Below are positions 19,055 through 29,864 of a stretch of DNA of 64,000 nucleotides, piece by piece. Location of the stretch: the NCBI RefSeq assembly GCF_001463705.1, contig NZ_BBWH01000039.1, positions 1-64,000 on the forward strand, given 5' to 3'. The position numbers and the translations under genes were made by a program. This stretch comes from Aureimonas sp. AU12. GTDB taxonomy: Bacteria > Pseudomonadota > Alphaproteobacteria > Rhizobiales > Rhizobiaceae. The notes under the pieces are model-generated. The model ran no database searches. It was not told the origin of the DNA and saw only the letters and a list, made by a program, of their open reading frames with translations. Every line of letters starts with the position of its first letter. Within the stretch, counting starts at the first letter, position 1.

Positions 19055-20161
19055 ATGAAGGCACTGTCATTCCGGGGTCCCATGGCGGACCGCATGATCC
19101 GCGGCCGTCGAGGCATCCTCGCGGTCGCCGCCGCGATCCTGCTTGCCTCAGGCGCGATCGCGTCCGCGCAGGAGGCAGGCTTCGGAGCGCCGGCCACCGT
19201 CGCGCCCGTGGCCCCGGCCCCTGTCGCGCAGCCCGCTGTGCCCTCCGCCTCGGAGGCGCCTGCCGCACCGCCGGCCTCAAACCCCTCTTCTGCGGCCGCG
19301 CCGGCGATGGCCCCATCGTCCCCCGCCCTCGTCGGCGCACCGCAGGAGACCGCGCCCGCCGCCGCCCCGTCGCTCGAAGTCACGAGCCCCATCGAGGCCG
19401 GCGAGGTCCCCGCCGCTGACGAAGCGCCCGCCGCCACGGGCGCGTTGCCGCACGACCTGTCGCCTTGGGGCATGTTCCTCGCCGCCGACTACGTCGTGAA
19501 GGCGGTGATGCTGGGCCTCGCCTTCGCCTCGCTGGTGACGTGGACGATCTGGCTCGCCAAGGTGCTGGAACTGGCCGCCGCCAAGCGCCGGGCGCTGGCA
19601 GGTGTCAAGCGTCTCGGCTCGACCGCCGGCCTGCCGGCGCCGGACGGGCTGGACGCCGCCGGCTGGCGGCGCGGTCCGGTGGCCGCGCTCGTGCGGGCCG
19701 CCGTGGAGGAACGGGCGAAATCGGCCGACCTGCCGGCCGACGGCGTGAAGGAGCGCGCGGCCGCCGCGCTGCACCGGATCGAGGCGCGCGCCGGACGCAG
19801 GATGACACGCGGCACCGGCCTTCTCGCCACGATCGGCTCGACGGCACCCTTCGTCGGCCTGTTCGGGACGGTCTGGGGCATCATGAACTCGTTCATCGGC
19901 ATCAGCCAGGCCAACACGACCAACCTCGCCGTGGTTGCCCCCGGCATCGCCGAGGCGCTGCTCGCCACCGCCATCGGCCTCGTCGCGGCCATCCCCGCGG
20001 TCATCATCTACAACGTATTCGCCCGCGCCATCGCCGGCTACAAGGCGGTGCTCTCGGACGCCTCGGCCGGCGTCCTCCAGCACCTGTCGCGCGATCTCGA
20101 CCGGGCGAAGTTCGCGGCGCGCCCGGCGGGCGGGCGTCCCTCGCTGCAGGCGGCGGAGTAA
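19055..20161 (+). CDS. exbB: TonB-system energiser ExbB (MotA/TolQ/ExbB family)
   Basis: This 368-residue inner-membrane proton-channel subunit powers TonB-dependent outer-membrane uptake. It starts with a signal peptide ([19 protein letters not shown]). An Ala/Pro-rich periplasmic stretch of about 90 residues follows, and then the three-helix MotA/ExbB domain with [24 protein letters not shown]. The extended periplasmic N-terminus is common in alphaproteobacterial ExbB. GGAAGG precedes the ATG; an in-frame ATG at 19082 is an alternative. It heads exbB-exbD-tonB. Confidence 0.95.
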
Positions 20162-20165
20162 TCCC

Positions 20166-20651
20166 GTGGGGGTCAGTCTCAAGTCCGGCGACGACGACGA
20201 CACCGGCGAAGTCGCCGACATCAACGTCACGCCCTTCATCGACGTCGTGCTGGTGCTGCTCATCATCTTCATGGTGGCGGCCCCCCTCTCCACCGTCGAC
20301 GTGCCGGTGGACCTGCCGGTCTCGAACGCGCGCCCGCAGGAACGCCCGGACGAGCCGCTCTATCTGACCGTGCAGGACGACCTCAACCTCGTGATCGGCG
20401 AGGAGCCGGTGTCGAAGGAAACGCTGCGTGCCGTTCTCGACGCTCGCACCGGGGCCAACCGCGAGGAGCGCATCTTCCTGCGCGCCGACGGGGCCGTCGC
20501 CTATGGCGACCTGATGGAAGTCATGAACGCGCTGCGCGATGCCGGCTATCTGAAGATCGCGCTCGTCGGCCTCGAGAACGCCGCGCCCGGGAGCGCACCC
20601 GCCGCCGCGCCTTCGTCCGCCGCTCCCGCCGGATCGCCGCCGCAGCCATGA
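20166..20651 (+). CDS. exbD: TonB-system subunit ExbD
   Basis: The 161-residue protein starts at a GTG four bases after the exbB stop. It has a cytoplasmic tail ([21 protein letters not shown]), one transmembrane helix containing the conserved proton-carrying Asp, and a periplasmic domain, all typical of ExbD/TolR. The last 20 residues are Ala/Pro/Ser-rich. The stop overlaps tonB as ATGA. Starts further upstream in this frame belong to a shadow of exbB. Confidence 0.93.
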
Positions 20652-21655
20652 GCACCGCCAACCCGCAGGATTGGGAGAAGCCCGGCGGCTGGCTGGGCGG
20701 AATGCGCTGGGGCGTCGCGGCGCTGGCCGTGTTGACCGCACATGCGGCCGCCGCCTGGTTCTTCGTGCAGATGCCGCCCGTCGCCGCGCCGCCGCAGGGC
20801 GTGCCGGAGGCGCCGATCTTCATCGACCTCGCGCCCCCCGCCGAAGCCGCGCCGGCCGCGCCCGCCGTCGAGACGCCGCCAACCGAGGCCGAGCCGGTGC
20901 CGGAGGCCGTGCCACCAGAGCCGGTGCCGCCCGAGCCCACGCCGGAGCCGCAACCCGAGCCCGAGCCGCAGGTGACGCCGCCGCCCGAACCGCTTCCGCC
21001 CGAACCGCCCCCACCAGAGCCAGTACCGGAGCCCGTTCCGCCGCCGCCCGAGCCCCTGCCGCCCGAACCGGTGGTACCCGAGCCGTTGCCGCCCGAACCG
21101 GTCGTGCCAGAGCCCGTGGTACCCGAGCCGCCACCCGAGGTGCCGCCGCCGGAGCTGCCGTTGACCGAGCAGCCTGCGGAGGCCGTCATCAACGCGCCGG
21201 TTCCGCGCGCCCGTCCGGCCCCGCCGCCGGAGCCGCAGGTAACCGAGCGTCGTCGGCCGCCGGAGCAACGGGAGACACCGGTTCGGCGCGAGGTCAGGCC
21301 GCGCGTCGAGCGCAAGGCCGCGCCGCCGCCCTCTCGCGCTTCAACCGCGAGCGCCGCCGCAAATGCCTCACAAGGTGCCAAGCCGAGGGTTTCGGCCAAC
21401 GACGAGCAACGTTGGCGTGCGCAGCTCAACGCTCGCGTACGCCGGTTCACGCGGTCGATCCGCGGTTCGGGGACGGCCACGGTGGCATTCCGGGTCACCG
21501 CCAGCGGGGCGGCGACGGGCATCCGGCTGGTCTCCTCGTCGGGGAATGCGATGGTCGATCAGGCCGCCCTGTCGGTCGTCCAGCGGGCCAGCCCGTTTCC
21601 GCCCAACCCGAGCGGAGAAGCGACGAACGTGACGATCCCCATCCGCTACAAGTGA
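20648..21655 (+). CDS. tonB: TonB energy transducer
   Basis: This 335-residue protein is anchored by one N-terminal helix (about residues 20-41). A very long Pro/Glu/Val-rich spacer follows (about 62-175), then a basic linker and a C-terminal TonB domain (from about 245) with GTATVAFRVTASGAATGIRLVSSSG and the terminal VTIPIRYK. It transmits the proton-motive force to outer-membrane receptors for siderophores, heme or B12. No receptor gene is next to it. The spacer is encoded by imperfect repeats around 20930-21150 and is likely to vary in length between strains. Confidence 0.94.
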   Translation: MSTANPQDWEKPGGWLGGMRWGVAALAVLTAHAAAAWFFVQMPPVAAPPQGVPEAPIFIDLAPPAEAAPAAPAVETPPTEAEPVPEAVPPEPVPPEPTPEPQPEPEPQVTPPPEPLPPEPPPPEPVPEPVPPPPEPLPPEPVVPEPLPPEPVVPEPVVPEPPPEVPPPELPLTEQPAEAVINAPVPRARPAPPPEPQVTERRRPPEQRETPVRREVRPRVERKAAPPPSRASTASAAANASQGAKPRVSANDEQRWRAQLNARVRRFTRSIRGSGTATVAFRVTASGAATGIRLVSSSGNAMVDQAALSVVQRASPFPPNPSGEATNVTIPIRYK

Positions 21656-23289: not shown

Positions 23290-23964
23290 ATGCGCATGCT
23301 TCTCGTCGAGGACAATGAAGGCCTCGGCGACGCCGTGAACCGGCATCTGCGCAATGCCGGCCATTCCGTCGAATGGGTGCGGTCAGGCGAGGACGCGCTG
23401 GAGGCCTGCGCCCATGAGCGCTTCGACGCCGTCATCCTCGATTTGACGCTGCCCGGCCGCGACGGGCTGTCGGTGATCGCCGAGTTGCGGCGCGCCCGCT
23501 CGGCCGTGCCGGTGCTGGTGGTCACCGCGCGCTCGGAGATCGACGACAAGATCAGCCTCCTGGATCTCGGCGCCGACGACTATCTGGTGAAGCCGTTCGA
23601 CCTGCGAGAGCTCGAGGCCCGTCTGCGCGCGCTGCTGCGCCGTCCCGCCGGGCAGACCACGAGCGTCGGCGTCTTCGGTAATGTCGCCGTCGATCTCGCC
23701 GGCCATGCGGTGACGGTGGCGGGCCGCTCGGTGGATCTCGGCCGCCGCGAGTTCCGGCTGCTTGAGATCCTCCTCTCGCGGCCCGGCGCCGTCGTGCAGA
23801 AGGAGCAGCTGATGGCGCAGCTCTTCTCCTTCGACGAAATGGTTTCGACCAACGCGCTCGAACTCTACGTCTCGCGCCTGCGCCGCAAGCTGGAGGGCTC
23901 TTCCGTCGAGATCGGCACCGTGCGCGGCGCCGGCTATGTCGCGCGGGTCCGCGATGCCGGCTAG
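23290..23964 (+). CDS. tctD: response regulator, OmpR/TctD family
   Basis: The ATG at 23290 gives 224 residues. The receiver domain has acidic residues (LVEDNEG), the phospho-acceptor Asp in FDAVILDLTLPGRDG, and the conserved Lys in DDYLVKPFD. The C-terminal half is a winged-helix DNA-binding domain ending with LYVSRLRRKLEGS and VRGAGYV. It should be phosphorylated by the kinase encoded in the overlapping gene. It is expected to control tctCBA as in TctD/TctE systems. The start codon has no strong Shine-Dalgarno sequence. Confidence 0.92.
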   Translation: MRMLLVEDNEGLGDAVNRHLRNAGHSVEWVRSGEDALEACAHERFDAVILDLTLPGRDGLSVIAELRRARSAVPVLVVTARSEIDDKISLLDLGADDYLVKPFDLRELEARLRALLRRPAGQTTSVGVFGNVAVDLAGHAVTVAGRSVDLGRREFRLLEILLSRPGAVVQKEQLMAQLFSFDEMVSTNALELYVSRLRRKLEGSSVEIGTVRGAGYVARVRDAG

Positions 23965-26464
23965 GGCGGTGTCGATCCGCCGGCGCATCCTCGTCGCCGC
24001 GACGGGGCTGCTCCTCCTCGCCGCGCTCGCGCTCGTCGCCTTCATCGGCGACTATGCCGCCCGCGCCTCGGACCGCGCCTTCGACCGCCTGCTCGCGGCC
24101 TCCGCGCTCACCATCGCCGGCGCCGTGCAGCTTGAAGAGGGCACGGTGACGGTGGAGCTGCCGCTCGCGTCCTTCGCCATGTTCTCGGGGCAGGACCGGA
24201 TCTTCTATTCGGTGAAGGCCCCCTCTGGCGCGGAGGTCACAGGCTACGGCGACCTCGCGGGCGCCCTGCCGCCGGCCGCCGACGACGACGCCGTCTTCGC
24301 CGATCTCGCCTATCGCGGCGAGCCGGTGCGGGTCGCCAGCGTCGGGCGCCTCGTTTCCACCGCCGACGGCACGGGCTGGGTGACGATCCGCGTCGCCGAG
24401 ACGCGCGGCGAGCGCGACGCCCTGGCGCGCGAGATCTTCGGCAACGCCATCGTGCCCGTCCTGGCGATGACGGCGCTGGCGCTGGGGCTGCTCTGGTTCG
24501 GCATCGGCCGCGTCTTCGCCCCGCTCCTGTCGCTGGAGCGGCATCTGCGCTCACGCTCGCCAGACAATCTGGCGCCGGTCGACCTGCCGGCGCCGCTGGA
24601 GGTGGCCCAGCTCGTCGGCGCGCTCAACGGCTTCATGGCGCGCCTCGCGACGGCACGCGAGCGGCTGGAATCGCTCGTTGCCGAGGCGGCGCACGAGGTC
24701 CGCACCCCCCTCGCTTCGCTGCGGGCGCAGGCCGAGGTGGCGCGCGGCGAGCGCGACGTGGCGGCGCTCCGCCGACAGGTCGAGCGGATCCACGACGGCG
24801 CGGTGCAGGCGAGCCAGCTGGTGACGCAGCTCCTGATGGACGCGACGATCTCGCACCGGCTGGAGACGAGGGCGGCGAGCGCCCCGACCTCGCTCGCCGC
24901 CGCGCTGAGGGAGGTCGTTCAGCGCCTCGACCCCGATCTCGCCGACCGCGTGACGCTGCAAGCCGACCCGGCGGCGGCGGACCTGCGGCTCGACGCCGAC
25001 CGCGTGGTCCTTCGCGAGATGCTGCGCAATCTCGTCGACAATGCCCTGCGCTACAGCGACGGCCCCGTCGATCTCGACGTGGCGACGACGCCGGGCGGCC
25101 TCGTCGAAATCCGCGTCGGCGACCGAGGCCCGGGCATCAGCGACGCCGAGAGGCCGCTCGTCTTCGAGCGCTTCCGGCGCGGCGCGGCGTCGGCCGGTAT
25201 CGCCGGCTCCGGCCTCGGCCTGCCGATCGTGGCGCGCGTCGTGGCGGCGCAGGGCGGCACGATCGCGCTGGAAGACCGGCCGGGCGGCGGGCTGACGGTT
25301 CGCCTGCGCCTGCCCCTGTCGGCCGAGCCGGCGGAGCGGCGGGCGCGTCCGATGGCGGCAGCGCTCGGGATCTTGGCCGTGGTGCTGGCAGGCGCCATTT
25401 CGCCGCCGACGCCCGCCCACGCGGCCGAAACCTTCTATCCCGCGCCGGACGGCACCCCCCGTGAGGTGCTGCACATCGCCGGCACCACCGACACGCCGCT
25501 CTTCGCCCCGCTCGCACAAGGCTTCCAGCGCACACGTCCGGACGTCGCGATCGCCTACGAGGAGGGCGACACGCTGCCGATCTTCGAGCGCTTCGTCGCC
25601 GGGGGATCGCCGGTTCCCGACATCCTGATGAGTTCGGCCGCCGACCTGCAGGTCAAGCTCGTCAACGACGGCCACGCGCGCCGCTACGCCTCGCCTGCCG
25701 TGGCGGCGATCCCGCCCTGGGCGACCTGGCGTTCCGAGGTTTTCGGCTTCTCCTTCGAGCCGGCCGTGATCGTCTACAACACGGCGAGCCTTGCCGAGAG
25801 CGAGGTGCCGCGCACTCACCTGGAACTCGCCGAACTGCTCGAGCGCGAGGCGTCGCGCTTTCGCGGCCGGGTCGCCACCTACGACGTCGCGCGCAGCGGC
25901 GTCGGCTATCTCCTGGCCGCGCAGGACCAGGCGATCTCGTCCTATTTCTGGCGTCTCGCCAGCGCCTTCGGGCGCACCGACGTGCGCCTCAGCGGATCGA
26001 GCCCGGCCATTCTCGACGGCCTCGCCACCGGCGAATTCGCCATCGGCTACAACATCCTGGGATCCTACGCCTTCGCCCGCCAGCAGGCCGGCGCGCCGAT
26101 CGGCATCGTGGTGCCCGACGACTACGTGCTCGTGCTCACCCGCTCCATGCTCATTCCACAGGGCGCGCCGCGCCCGGATCTTGCCGAAGCGTTCCTCGAC
26201 TTCACGCTCTCGCCGGCCGGACAGTCGATCCTCGCTGGCGCCGCCGCGCTCGGATCGGTGGTGCCGGGCTCGGCCGGTCGCTGGACGAGCGAGAGCATCG
26301 CGGCGCTCGGTCGCGGCGCGGTGCAGCCGATCGCGCTCAGCCCCTCGCTGCTCGTCGGCCTCGACCGGCAGCGCCGCGCCCGCTTCCTCGACACCTGGCA
26401 CGAGATCGTCTCGCCCCGCGTGCCCGACCCGCCGGGAGCCGACGCACCGCCCGTTCGCCCGTGA
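23954..26464 (+). CDS. TctE-like sensor histidine kinase fused to a periplasmic solute-binding protein
   Basis: This is one uninterrupted 836-residue frame. Residues 12-35 form transmembrane helix 1, about 36-165 a periplasmic sensor, and 166-187 helix 2. A HAMP-like region and HisKA domain (phospho-acceptor H247 in HEVRTPLASL) follow, then an ATPase domain with the N box near N363, DRGPG and GSGLGLP. Where a kinase normally ends (about residue 456), the chain continues. A third hydrophobic segment (467-485, MAAALGILAVVLAGAIS) is followed by an Ala-X-Ala site and about 345 residues of extracellular solute-binding protein (VLHIAGTTDTPLFAPLAQGF onwards; FbpA/PgtC-like). The topology is consistent: kinase inside, binding protein tethered outside. 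The gene overlaps tctD by 11 bases. The ATG at 25352 could also give a free, secreted binding protein. Confidence 0.88.
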   Translation: MPARAVSIRRRILVAATGLLLLAALALVAFIGDYAARASDRAFDRLLAASALTIAGAVQLEEGTVTVELPLASFAMFSGQDRIFYSVKAPSGAEVTGYGDLAGALPPAADDDAVFADLAYRGEPVRVASVGRLVSTADGTGWVTIRVAETRGERDALAREIFGNAIVPVLAMTALALGLLWFGIGRVFAPLLSLERHLRSRSPDNLAPVDLPAPLEVAQLVGALNGFMARLATARERLESLVAEAAHEVRTPLASLRAQAEVARGERDVAALRRQVERIHDGAVQASQLVTQLLMDATISHRLETRAASAPTSLAAALREVVQRLDPDLADRVTLQADPAAADLRLDADRVVLREMLRNLVDNALRYSDGPVDLDVATTPGGLVEIRVGDRGPGISDAERPLVFERFRRGAASAGIAGSGLGLPIVARVVAAQGGTIALEDRPGGGLTVRLRLPLSAEPAERRARPMAAALGILAVVLAGAISPPTPAHAAETFYPAPDGTPREVLHIAGTTDTPLFAPLAQGFQRTRPDVAIAYEEGDTLPIFERFVAGGSPVPDILMSSAADLQVKLVNDGHARRYASPAVAAIPPWATWRSEVFGFSFEPAVIVYNTASLAESEVPRTHLELAELLEREASRFRGRVATYDVARSGVGYLLAAQDQAISSYFWRLASAFGRTDVRLSGSSPAILDGLATGEFAIGYNILGSYAFARQQAGAPIGIVVPDDYVLVLTRSMLIPQGAPRPDLAEAFLDFTLSPAGQSILAGAAALGSVVPGSAGRWTSESIAALGRGAVQPIALSPSLLVGLDRQRRARFLDTWHEIVSPRVPDPPGADAPPVRP

Positions 26465-26701
26465 CAGGTTTTTGACAGGTCCGCCGCGCTAGGGTCGCGC
26501 CCGACGGCCGGGAGGCTTGGCGAGCAGTCATGGAACGAGGGCAATGCGGCTTTCACCCGAAGGGGTTGGGGCCGCTCCGGTGCGGAAAGGTCTGGAGGGA
26601 TCGTCCGCAGCGGTTTACCCGATCATTCGTTCGTGGTCTCTTCACGCGATGACTCCGCCGTTCAACGAATATCGGCGTAGCCATTCCTCGGGAGGACCAC
26701 C
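26465..26701. other. leader region of tctCBA
   Basis: This 237-base non-coding gap probably holds the TctD-controlled promoter of tctC. The direct repeat tgacaggt occurs twice near 26461-26482. I saw no clear palindrome or standard -35/-10 pair. Confidence 0.4.
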
Positions 26702-27658
26702 ATGAAGACCCTATTGCTCGGCGCCATCTTCGCCGCCGGCCTCGTTTCCACGAGCGCTTTCGCCCAGACCGCCAGCTATGAAATCATGGCGCCGGCCTCG
26801 CCGGGCGGCGGCTGGGACCAGACGGCCCGCGCCATGCAGAACGTCATGCAGGAAGCCAAGATCGCCGGCGACGTGCAGGTGGTCAACGTTCCCGGCGCCG
26901 GCGGCACGATCGGCCTCGCCCAGTTCGTCTCCGCCAAGTCCGGCAATCCGGAAGCCCTGCTCGTCGGCGGCTACGTGATGGTCGGCGCGATCCTCACGAA
27001 CAACTCCCCCGTCAGCCTCGACGACGTGACGCCGATCGCGCGCCTCACCGGCGAAACCGAGGCCGTCGTGGTGCCGGCCGCATCGCCGTTCCAGACGATC
27101 GGCGACCTCGTCACCGCGATGAAGGCCGATCCCGGCGCGGTGGCGATCGCCGGCGGCTCGGCCGGCGGCACCGACCACATCGCGGCCGGCCTCATCGCGC
27201 AGGCCGCCGGCGTCGATCCCAAGCTGATCAACTACATCGCCTTCTCGGGCGGCGGCGAAGCGCTCGCCGCGATCCTCGGCCAGCAGGTCGCGGCCGGCAT
27301 TTCCGGTTACGGCGAGTTCGAGTCGCAGATCAAGGCCGGCACGCTGCGCCTCCTCGCCACCACGGGCGACGAGAAGGTGCCAGGCACCGAAGCCCCGACG
27401 CTGAAGGAAGCCGGGCTCGACGTCTCGCTGCAGAATTGGCGCATGGTCGCCGCCGCGCCCGGCATCTCGGCCGAGCAGCAGGCCGCCATTACGGCCGACA
27501 TGGAGAAGCTCTCGAAGTCGCCGGAGTGGCAGGCCGTGCTCGAGCGCAACAACTGGCAGGACACGTTCCTCGCTGGCGACGCGTTCAAGACCGAGTTGGC
27601 CAAGAACGTCACCGACACGAAGGCGGTCCTCACCGCGATCGGCCTCGTTCAGCAATGA
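26702..27658 (+). CDS. tctC: tripartite tricarboxylate transporter substrate-binding protein TctC
   Basis: This 318-residue periplasmic receptor (Bug family) has a signal peptide ([18 protein letters not shown]). The family motifs are [13 protein letters not shown] near the N-terminus and [13 protein letters not shown]. It captures a carboxylate for the TctA/TctB permease. A strong GGGAGGA lies before the ATG. The stop overlaps tctB as ATGA. The ligand could be citrate, another di/tricarboxylate or a different acid. The sequence does not settle this. Confidence 0.93.
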
Positions 27659-28155
27659 GCGAGCGGCTCGACCAGGAGATCCAGCATCGCCGCCCCGATC
27701 GGGCGGCGATGGCCATCGGCGTGGCGCTCGGCGTTCTCGGGCTGCTCGTCGGCTGGGACGCGAGCCATGTCGGCGGCGGCGCCTATGCCCGCGTCGGCCC
27801 GGCGACCTTTCCCTATGTGATCGCCCTCGCCCTCGTCGGCCTCTCGGTCTGGACCGTGATCGAAGCCTGGCGCGGCAAGTTTCCCGAGCGCGACCACGAC
27901 GAGATCGGCCCGATCATCTGGATCGTCGGCGGCCTCTCGGCACAGCTGATCCTCCTCAACACCGCCGGCTTCGCGATCGCCACCGGGCTTCTCTTCGCCG
28001 CGACGGCGCGGGCCTTCGGCAAGCGCGAACTCTGGATGACGATCCCGATCGGCATCCTTCTCAGCCTCGGCATCTGGCTGGTCTTCACGCAGGTCCTGCG
28101 GCTCGCCCTGCCCCGTGGTCCGCTGGAAAACCTCGTCCTCGGCCTGTTCACCTGA
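27655..28155 (+). CDS. tctB: tripartite tricarboxylate transporter small membrane subunit TctB
   Basis: This 166-residue protein has about four transmembrane segments and an RVGPATFPYVIALALVGLSV stretch typical of TctB. The ATG overlaps the tctC stop. The function of TctB within the permease is poorly understood but it is essential in characterised systems. A gap of 98 bases separates it from tctA, with no promoter evident. Confidence 0.92.
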   Translation: MSERLDQEIQHRRPDRAAMAIGVALGVLGLLVGWDASHVGGGAYARVGPATFPYVIALALVGLSVWTVIEAWRGKFPERDHDEIGPIIWIVGGLSAQLILLNTAGFAIATGLLFAATARAFGKRELWMTIPIGILLSLGIWLVFTQVLRLALPRGPLENLVLGLFT

Positions 28156-28253: not shown

Positions 28254-29864
28254 ATGGATACATTCGCACTGCTCGGGCAAGGCCTCCTGACGGCCGCCCA
28301 GCCGATGAACCTTCTCTACGCGCTGATCGGCGTGACGCTCGGCACCGCCGTCGGCGTGCTGCCCGGCATCGGCCCGGCGCTGACGGTGGCGCTGCTGCTG
28401 CCCGTCACCTACCAGCTCGACGCGGCCGGCTCGCTCATCATGTTCGCCGGCATCTACTACGGCGGCATGTACGGCGGTTCGACGACCTCGATCCTCCTCA
28501 ACACGCCCGGTGAGAGCGCCTCGATCATCACCGCGCTCGAGGGCAACAAGATGGCCCGCGCGGGCCGAGGCGGCCCCGCGCTCGCCACCGCCGCCATCGG
28601 CTCCTTCGTCGCCGGCTTGATTGCGACGCTGGGTCTGGCCTTCCTCGCGCCCGTCATCGTCTCCTTCGCGCTCTCCTTCGGCCCGGCCGAGTATTTCGCG
28701 CTGATGATCCTCGCCTTCGTCACCGTCTCGGCCGCCTTCGGCGACTCGGCGCTGCGGGGCCTGACCTCGCTGGCGCTCGGCCTGACGCTCGGCCTCGTCG
28801 GCATCGACCTGCAGACGGGACAAGCCCGCCTCACCCTGACGGCGGCCGCCAAGACCTTCCGCACGCTGGCCGCCGATCCCACCGCGGCGCTGGCGCCGGT
28901 CTACGGCGCGTTCGCCTCCTTCTTCGGCGGCATCTCGGCCAATCTCCTCGACGGCATCGAAGTGACGACGCTGGCCGTGGCGCTCTTCGCCATCGGCGAG
29001 GCGCTCGTCGTGGCAGCGGCCGGCGCGCGCATGCCCGACAAGATCGAGGCGGTGAAGGGTTCGCTCTGGATGACGAAGGAGGACTGGAAGCGGTCCTGGA
29101 AGCCCTGGCTGCGCGGCACGGCGGTCGGTTTTCCGATCGGCGCGATGCCGGCCGGCGGCGCCGAGATCGGCACCTTCCTCTCCTATTCGATGGAAAAGAG
29201 CCTGTCGAAACACCCGGAAGAGTTTGGCCACGGTGCCATCGAGGGCGTCGCGGGACCGGAGGCCGCCAACAACGCCTCGGCCGCCGGCACGCTCGTGCCG
29301 CTGCTGACGCTGGGCCTGCCGACCTCGGCGACCGCCGCGATCATGCTCGCCGCGTTCCAGCAGTTCGGACTGCAGCCCGGTCCGCTCCTCTTCATCACAT
29401 CGCCGCAGATCGTCTGGGGCCTCGTCGCCAGCCTTCTCATCGCCAACCTGATGCTGGTGGTGCTCAACCTGCCGTTGATCGGTCTGTGGGTGCGCTTGCT
29501 GACGATCCCGCGCCCCTGGCTCTATGCGGGCATCCTCGTCTTCGCGACGCTGGGCTGCATCGGCGCCAACCCGTCCTCGGTCGAACTCGGCATGCTGCTC
29601 GCCTTCGGTCTGCTCGGCTACATGCTCCGTCGCTTCGGCTATCCGATCGCGCCGGTGGTGGTCGGCCTGATCCTCGGGCCGATGGCCGAGCAGCAGCTGC
29701 GCCGGGCCCTGGCGATCAGCCAGGGCGATCCGAGCGTGCTGGTGCATTCCTGGCTGGCCATCGCGCTGCTGACGCTCGCCGCGCTGGCGCTGTTCGTGCC
29801 GATGATCCTGCGGGCCCGCGGACGCGGCAAGCTTCTCGCCGCCATGGCGTCCGACGAGGACTGA
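28254..29864 (+). CDS. tctA: tripartite tricarboxylate transporter large permease TctA
   Basis: This 536-residue membrane permease has about 12 helices and the family signatures [37 protein letters not shown] and [17 protein letters not shown]. It is the transport channel of the Tct system. The ribosome binding site is weak. The start was chosen because TctA proteins begin just before the first helix. A strong terminator follows at 29912. Confidence 0.94.

What the first reader, a model, noticed from the sequence alone, without database searches (positions are those of the whole stretch)
23954..26464. Histidine kinase fused in one frame to a periplasmic solute-binding protein
The frame runs from a TctE-like kinase straight into a third hydrophobic segment and a complete extracellular binding-protein domain, with no stop between them. 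The topology is coherent: kinase cytoplasmic, binding protein outside. The linked tctCBA transporter and tctD suggest the kinase could read ligand directly through its own receptor, like a covalent version of the Salmonella PgtB/PgtC arrangement, where a separate binding-protein-like PgtC modulates the kinase. An internal ATG at 25352 with its own signal-like sequence could also make a free binding protein. I do not know how common this fused architecture is.
Basis: partly seen in the sequence, partly recalled or inferred. Interest (0 to 1): 0.8.

Follow-up and report, generated by a model that had tools for sequence, protein, structure and literature searches.

The report
Citrate sensor made as cleavable polyprotein
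One bacterial gene encodes a sensor kinase joined to a relative of a magnesium-citrate-binding protein, with a conserved signal-peptide-like joint between them, so the cell likely makes sensor and detector as one chain that is predicted to be cut in two and would then switch on the citrate-type uptake genes next door.

The parts
23290..23964 (+). OmpR/PhoB-type response regulator, TctD-like; its stop lies inside the start of the fused gene
   Evidence: Pfam Response_reg and Trans_reg_C; best NCBIfam hit TctD NF012023, 204 bits, below its cut-off of 337
23954..26464 (+). fused gene: TctE-like histidine kinase plus C-terminal solute-binding protein, 836 aa
   Evidence: 85 of 101 loci fused
24011..24436 (+). 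2CSK_N periplasmic sensor domain (with flanking membrane helices)
   Evidence: Pfam E 1.2e-34; model helices 8-56 and 152-187
24668..24850 (+). HisKA, with the invariant H247 of AAHEVRTPL (named as phospho-acceptor by recalled convention)
   Evidence: H247 invariant in the 66 aligned fused proteins
24998..25321 (+). HATPase_c catalytic domain
25352..25354 (+). internal in-frame ATG (M467), not conserved, no Shine-Dalgarno-like 4-mer in place
25364..25399 (+). short hydrophobic core (residues 471-482), signal-peptide-like
   Evidence: no helix and pLDDT under 50 in the model
25415..25423 (+). AHA (residues 488-490), predicted signal peptidase I site; predicted cut after A490, between 25423 and 25424
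   Evidence: Ala at this column in 99% of 187 fused proteins; nearly invariant in 66
25427..26413 (+). solute-binding protein domain (residues 492-820), MctA-like, predicted (metal-)citrate binder
26462..26479 (+). direct repeat TGACAGG-TTTT-TGACAGG, predicted operator of the TctD-like regulator, starting in the stop codon of the fused gene
   Evidence: only match at <=1 mismatch in the 4.67 Mb genome; conserved before tctC in relatives
26702..27658 (+). tctC, binding protein of the tripartite tricarboxylate transporter
   Evidence: Pfam TctC 1.3e-24
27655..28155 (+). tctB
   Evidence: Pfam TctB 1.4e-20 on the longer ORF; start chosen from the sequence
28254..29864 (+). tctA
   Evidence: Pfam TctA 2.5e-144

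Best explanation
One gene encodes a TctE-like histidine kinase joined in frame to a solute-binding protein whose nearest solved relative of named ligand is the Mg-citrate-binding protein MctA; the conserved signal-peptide-like joint is predicted to be cut by signal peptidase I after Ala490, and the freed binding protein would likely report metal-citrate to the kinase and switch on tctCBA through the TctD-like regulator. Steps. (1) Shown: one ORF, domain order, linked regulator and transporter. (2) Shown by comparison: the joint keeps a short hydrophobic core and an Ala at the predicted cut in the fused lineages aligned or printed here. (3) Inferred: the export machinery and signal peptidase I handle the joint as an internal signal peptide, leaving its core as a third membrane segment on the kinase and releasing residues 491-836. 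(4) Inferred: the binding protein closes on (metal-)citrate and touches the 2CSK_N domain, as citrate-loaded BctC does with BctE. (5) Inferred: the phosphorylated regulator binds the TGACAGG repeats before tctC. Making both parts as one chain would give equal amounts at the membrane; the transporter has a binding protein of its own (TctC here, a second free SBP in Alcaligenaceae).
Against: No protein evidence of cutting, and no citrate or phosphorylation data. The joint's core is more hydrophobic over 12 residues (2.67) than the free signal peptides (2.21-2.29), so it may anchor some molecules uncut. The joint is Ala-rich: shuffling its residues still gives an [AVST]xA in about 161 of 187 (180 observed; largest of 200 shuffles 175). 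A matrix trained on TctC-type signals passes only 36 of 187 joints (3 of 187 helix-1 controls), although it also passes only 4 of 16 unfused SBP N-termini. In the clade the motif is almost as common after helix 1 (85 of 115) as in the joint (103 of 115), and hydropathy differs less (2.04 against 2.49). If the parts separate at once, the benefit of fusion is unproven. MctA S26 is not kept across the family (Thr, Val, Pro or Ala). The operator resembles a reverse-complement Pho box, and 11 of 38 loci lack a good match (10 at 7-10 of 14, one at 11).
Confidence: 0.62

Rival explanations
1. Permanently tethered receptor: the third hydrophobic segment stays as a membrane anchor and the covalently held binding protein touches the 2CSK_N domain of the same dimer.
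For: One ORF, coherent topology, positively charged residues before the core in the window; 12-residue hydropathy somewhat above free signal peptides.
Against: 19-residue hydropathy is that of cleavable signals, not of the kinase's own helices; 99% Ala at the predicted -1 column in a free-running joint is not needed by an anchor; no helix in the model; a Devosia MAG has the parts unfused.
Confidence: 0.22
2. Mixed population: partial cutting gives both a tethered and a free binding protein, the tethered one for sensing and the free one for other use.
For: Core hydropathy lies between free signals and anchors over 12 residues.
Against: No direct evidence; Ala490 conservation suggests efficient cutting.
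Confidence: 0.1
3. Two separate proteins made by two starts: the internal ATG at 25352 makes the binding protein and the fused product is of no use.
For: Internal ATG in frame before the core in the window; unfused relatives start the SBP at the joint.
Against: In-frame ATG in only 22 of 82 fused loci, a start with a Shine-Dalgarno-like 4-mer in 8 of 82; the frame is open across the joint in 85 loci.
Confidence: 0.04
4. Independent of the cutting question: the ligand is not citrate, and the fused SBP senses another anion, for instance an iron complex, a sugar phosphate or another carboxylate.
Against: MctA stands about 15 Z units above the ferric and sugar-phosphate binders, its ligand-critical residues are kept, and the neighbour is tctCBA.
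Confidence: 0.25

Closest known systems
BctDE/BctC of Bordetella pertussis and TctDE of Salmonella (regulators of tctCBA-type citrate transporters)
   Same: Two-component system beside a tripartite tricarboxylate transporter, with a binding protein as signal relay in Bordetella (PMC9602780, PMC5812351, passages). That TctE carries 2CSK_N is recalled.
   Different: In Bordetella the relay is TctC-family BctC, a separate protein that also serves transport; here it is a different SBP family encoded in one frame with the kinase, besides TctC.
MctA, Mg-citrate-binding SBP of an ABC transporter (7f6e, 7f6f)
   Different: MctA is titled an ABC transporter protein; here the domain is joined to a kinase beside a TTT transporter; S26 is not kept.
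BvgS/EvgS kinases with Venus-flytrap sensor domains
   Same: SBP-type domains within a histidine kinase polypeptide (PMC8534201, passages).
   Different: There two tandem domains form the periplasmic sensor region ahead of the catalytic core (order partly recalled); here the SBP follows the catalytic domain and needs its own export segment.
Cytochrome b/c1 precursor FbcH of Bradyrhizobium (recalled; searches found no paper on it; PMC6256036, passages, only cites the gene cluster)
   Same: One gene, two proteins, separated at an internal signal sequence (recalled).
   Different: Respiratory enzyme, not a sensor; the window's own genome keeps cytochrome b and c1 in separate frames.

Membership tests
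TctDE/BctDE two-component systems | 2CSK_N + HisKA + HATPase_c kinase | tested here: met
   Pfam above cut-offs
TctDE/BctDE two-component systems | regulator reaches NCBIfam TctD equivalog cut-off | tested here: not met
   NF012023 is the best hit but 204 of 337 bits; hence 'TctD-like'
TctDE/BctDE two-component systems | adjacent tctCBA transporter | tested here: met
   Pfam TctC, TctB, TctA
TctDE/BctDE two-component systems | citrate-dependent induction of tctCBA | not testable with these tools
   needs a reporter assay
MctA-type metal-citrate-binding SBP | MctA fold at high similarity | tested here: met
MctA-type metal-citrate-binding SBP | residues whose mutants were deposited as apo (S79, S164, T199, Y221) | tested here: met
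   S561, S648, Y705 identical; S683 for T199, a conservative change; Ser, Ser, Ser/Thr, Tyr in 186-187 of 187
MctA-type metal-citrate-binding SBP | S26 (mutant still titled Mg-citrate-bound) | tested here: not met
   T511 here; Thr 72, Val 62, Pro 26, Ala 23 of 187
MctA-type metal-citrate-binding SBP | works with an ABC transporter | tested here: not met
   window has a TTT transporter; an ABC importer follows in Achromobacter L144
signal peptidase I substrate | small residues at -3 and -1 after a short hydrophobic core | tested here: met
signal peptidase I substrate | score of a matrix trained on TctC-type signals | tested here: inconclusive
   window scores 13.5 against a threshold of 8.7, but only 36 of 187 joints and 4 of 16 unfused SBP N-termini pass
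signal peptidase I substrate | cleavage | not testable with these tools
   needs protein data
BvgS/EvgS-type Venus-flytrap kinases | SBP-type domain N-terminal to the kinase core | tested here: not met
   SBP at 514-775, after HATPase_c 349-456
PgtB/PgtC | homology of kinase and of binding protein to PgtB and PgtC | not tested
   no PgtB or PgtC sequence was compared

The most novel reading that the evidence does not exclude
A bacterial receptor polyprotein: kinase and ligand-binding subunit are translated as one chain, signal peptidase I matures them into a one-to-one pair, and the spent signal sequence stays as a third membrane segment that leashes the C-terminus of the kinase's catalytic domain. 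The arrangement arose repeatedly from gene pairs coupled by a four-base overlap and kept its operator while the regulated importer switched between TTT and ABC types.
Probability: 0.58. Interest if true: 0.78.

Novelty: new variant of a known kind. Interest (0 to 1): 0.62.

Why it matters
Kinases that sense through a partner binding protein are known (about 10 characterised cases, per a passage of PMC9602780), but how partner supply is matched to the kinase is, as far as I know, open. A recurrent fusion with a conserved cut site would be a natural way to fix the ratio, a rare bacterial example of one gene yielding two signalling proteins, and a ready-made test system: regulator, kinase, ligand subunit, operator and target lie within 6.6 kb. 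It also warns that database entries named either 'sensor histidine kinase' or 'extracellular solute-binding protein' hide the other half.

Tried and rejected
Rejected: sequencing or assembly artefact (the frame is open in 85 loci; 65 other full-length fused proteins align). Rejected: conserved internal start. Rejected as a precedent in this genome: cytochrome b and c1 are in separate frames here. Weak tools that I keep but do not lean on: the TctC-trained matrix, biased to its training families; the shuffle control on an Ala-rich joint; the helix-1 motif control, which discriminates in the main set but not in the clade.

Not found: a paper describing the architecture. Searches (held PMC library only; listings seen) gave none; PMC4618731 (passages) counts SBP_bac_1 among input domains of classic histidine kinases in three of four Azospirillum strains, without comment in the passages seen. 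No paper on MctA or FbcH was found; what I say of FbcH is recalled, and of MctA comes from PDB titles.

Limits: of the 101 loci, 20 were regions that I chose (6 fused, 14 with kinase and SBP adjacent) and 80 are the best of 533 confirmed, so 85 of 101 is not a frequency. L129 is cut by a contig end, so its 'helix 1' is not one. In one search my script took a start downstream of the NTGA overlap for the SBPs of L088-L090, so 3 of the 16 unfused N-termini there and are not the true ones. For L100 chose an ATG 19 bases inside the kinase gene, another the TTG of the TTGA overlap. The tree is a 'quick' one of 83 representatives out of 180 rows, with one very long row (L016); 24 of its 80 inner branches are open; counts cannot tell gain from loss. 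One search examined the 42 loci whose TctC matched at E < 1e-60, with mononucleotide shuffles. With up to 3 mismatches the operator pattern has 3 matches in the window against 2.86 expected; only the exact match is telling.

Full report
What is there. The + strand ORF at 23954-26464 encodes 836 residues without a stop. Pfam finds, in order, 2CSK_N (20-161), HisKA (239-299), HATPase_c (349-456) and an SBP domain (within 514-775). An OmpR-type regulator, TctD-like but below the NCBIfam TctD cut-off, overlaps its start, and tctC, tctB, tctA follow.

How common. Among proteins of 0.55 to 1.75 times its length, 631 match residues 480-830 at E <= 1e-5 of 7992 scored candidates; in the 120 listed the precomputed Pfam rows carry a kinase ATPase domain and SBP domains together, and the names shown include Aureimonas, Devosia, Pelagibacterium and Mesorhizobium. 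In genome samples, single full-length matches were seen in 5 of 150 genomes of the order (E <= 1e-60), 3 of 385 of the class (E <= 1e-55) and 1, the window's own, of 398 of the phylum (E <= 1e-50); separate kinase and SBP matches are commoner. A scan of named genomes returned the best 80 of 533 confirmed loci. Over 101 loci (window, 20 regions that I chose, these 80), 85 are one ORF and 16 are not; this is no frequency, since the sample leans to relatives. Fused taxa include Aureimonas, Devosia, Pelagibacterium, Labrys, Pararhizobium, Paracoccus, Alsobacter, Azospirillum, Skermanella, Achromobacter, Bordetella and Alcaligenes. Searching with the divergent fused protein of G473 gave a further set (159 at E <= 1e-10 of 7994 scored, 120 listed) with names such as Paracoccus, Sulfitobacter, Roseovarius and Salipiger, which I call Rhodobacterales from memory.

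History. On a tree of 83 representative SBPs (of 180 rows) the fused state needs 5 changes, of which starred branches force at least 3: an Azospirillum/Skermanella group, a large Alsobacter/Alcaligenaceae/Devosia/Aureimonas/Labrys group holding one unfused row, and two single rows (G394, G473). Of the 16 unfused loci, 15 overlap by four bases (12 ATGA, 2 GTGA, 1 TTGA) with the SBP frame open from that point; one indel there could fuse them (inference). The sixteenth, a Devosia MAG (L138), is the unfused row inside the large group: it has regulator, SBP and kinase as separate genes in a new order, the kinase stopping soon after its catalytic domain.

The joint. In 66 aligned full-length fused proteins the only nearly invariant residue between P454 and P496 is A490. 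In 187 distinct fused proteins that column is 99% Ala, the best other column in 455-494 being 75%; among 81 loci read the codon is GCC 34, GCG 33, GCA 10, GCT 3, and TAC once (L165, where the alignment sets Tyr before an Ala; L087 has a gap there). The hydrophobic stretch is short: best 19-residue hydropathy 1.85, beside 1.63-1.69 for three sets of free SBP N-termini and 3.02 and 2.51 for the kinase's two membrane helices. [AVST]xA follows it in 181 of 187 and follows helix 1 in 36 of 187. AlphaFold2 (mean pLDDT 86.5) gives confident long helices for segments 1 and 2 and no helix, pLDDT under 50, for segment 3. These are the marks of a cleavable signal peptide, hence the polyprotein reading. 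Results that temper it: over 12 residues the core (2.67) is more hydrophobic than free signals (2.21-2.29); the joint is Ala-rich, so shuffles give the motif in about 161 of 187 (180 observed); a TctC-trained matrix accepts 36 of 187 joints, 3 of 187 helix-1 controls and 4 of 16 unfused SBP N-termini; in 115 proteins (of 120, those of 770 residues or more) hydropathy differs less (2.04 against 2.49), the motif is also common after helix 1 (103 against 85 of 115), and the best Ala column of the joint is 89%.

The output. TGACAGGTTTTTGACAGG at 26462-26479 begins in the stop codon of the fused gene and is the only match with at most one mismatch in the 4.67 Mb genome; the reversed control pattern has none. 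The same 7-4-7 repeat lies within 300 bp before tctC in 37 of 42 loci at 12 or more of 14 bases (25 perfect), although in Devosia loci tctCBA lies on the other strand; the misses are L084, L142, L091 (11), L085 and L097 (9). In L144-L180 and L182, 27 of 38 have 12 or more of 14 within 400 nt after the fused gene, mostly near-identical Achromobacter sites. In 32 of these 38 loci a second, free SBP follows; in Achromobacter L144, the one checked, it is followed by a permease and an ABC ATPase. Thus the predicted operator seems to stay while the importer changes. In P. aeruginosa a TctD motif alone marks the tctD and opdH-tctCBA promoters (PMC4513871, passages). The repeat also resembles a reversed Pho box, and one perfect Pho-type box lies elsewhere in the genome, so PhoB input is not excluded.

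Mechanism and rank. I rate the cut polyprotein at 0.62, the permanent tether at 0.22. The signalling logic, a binding protein loaded with citrate touching the kinase's periplasmic sensor domain, has a direct precedent in BctC/BctE (PMC9602780, PMC5812351, passages), but there the relay is the transport SBP itself; here sensing and transport would use different binding proteins. I class it as a new variant of a known kind.

Noticed in passing
L138:4797-7459 (Devosia sp. MAG RYN_485): Same system split and reordered as regulator-SBP-kinase, the kinase ending soon after the catalytic domain: a natural unfused version inside a fused group (one MAG).
   Followed up: partly
L088, L089, L090 (unfused pairs; genomes G701, G866, G718): The partner SBPs begin with twin-arginine-like stretches (for instance SPTRRAFLAGLA) rather than a plain signal, read by eye from the translations.
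   Followed up: no
L144:6151-10219; similar second SBPs in 32 loci of L144-L182: Fused kinase gene followed by a free paralogous SBP, a 592-aa permease and an ABC ATPase (L144), with a related TGACAGG repeat in between.
   Followed up: partly
P0147, P0172, P0211: Source names place some relatives of the second fused set on plasmids.
   Followed up: no
26462-26478 read on the - strand; genome C28:20533-20549: The predicted operator resembles a reversed Pho box; a perfect CTGTCAT-N4-CTGTCA box lies elsewhere in the genome and its neighbours were not examined.
   Followed up: partly
19055-21655 (+): Three ORFs that read like ExbB, ExbD and a Pro/Glu-rich TonB; by eye only.
   Followed up: no
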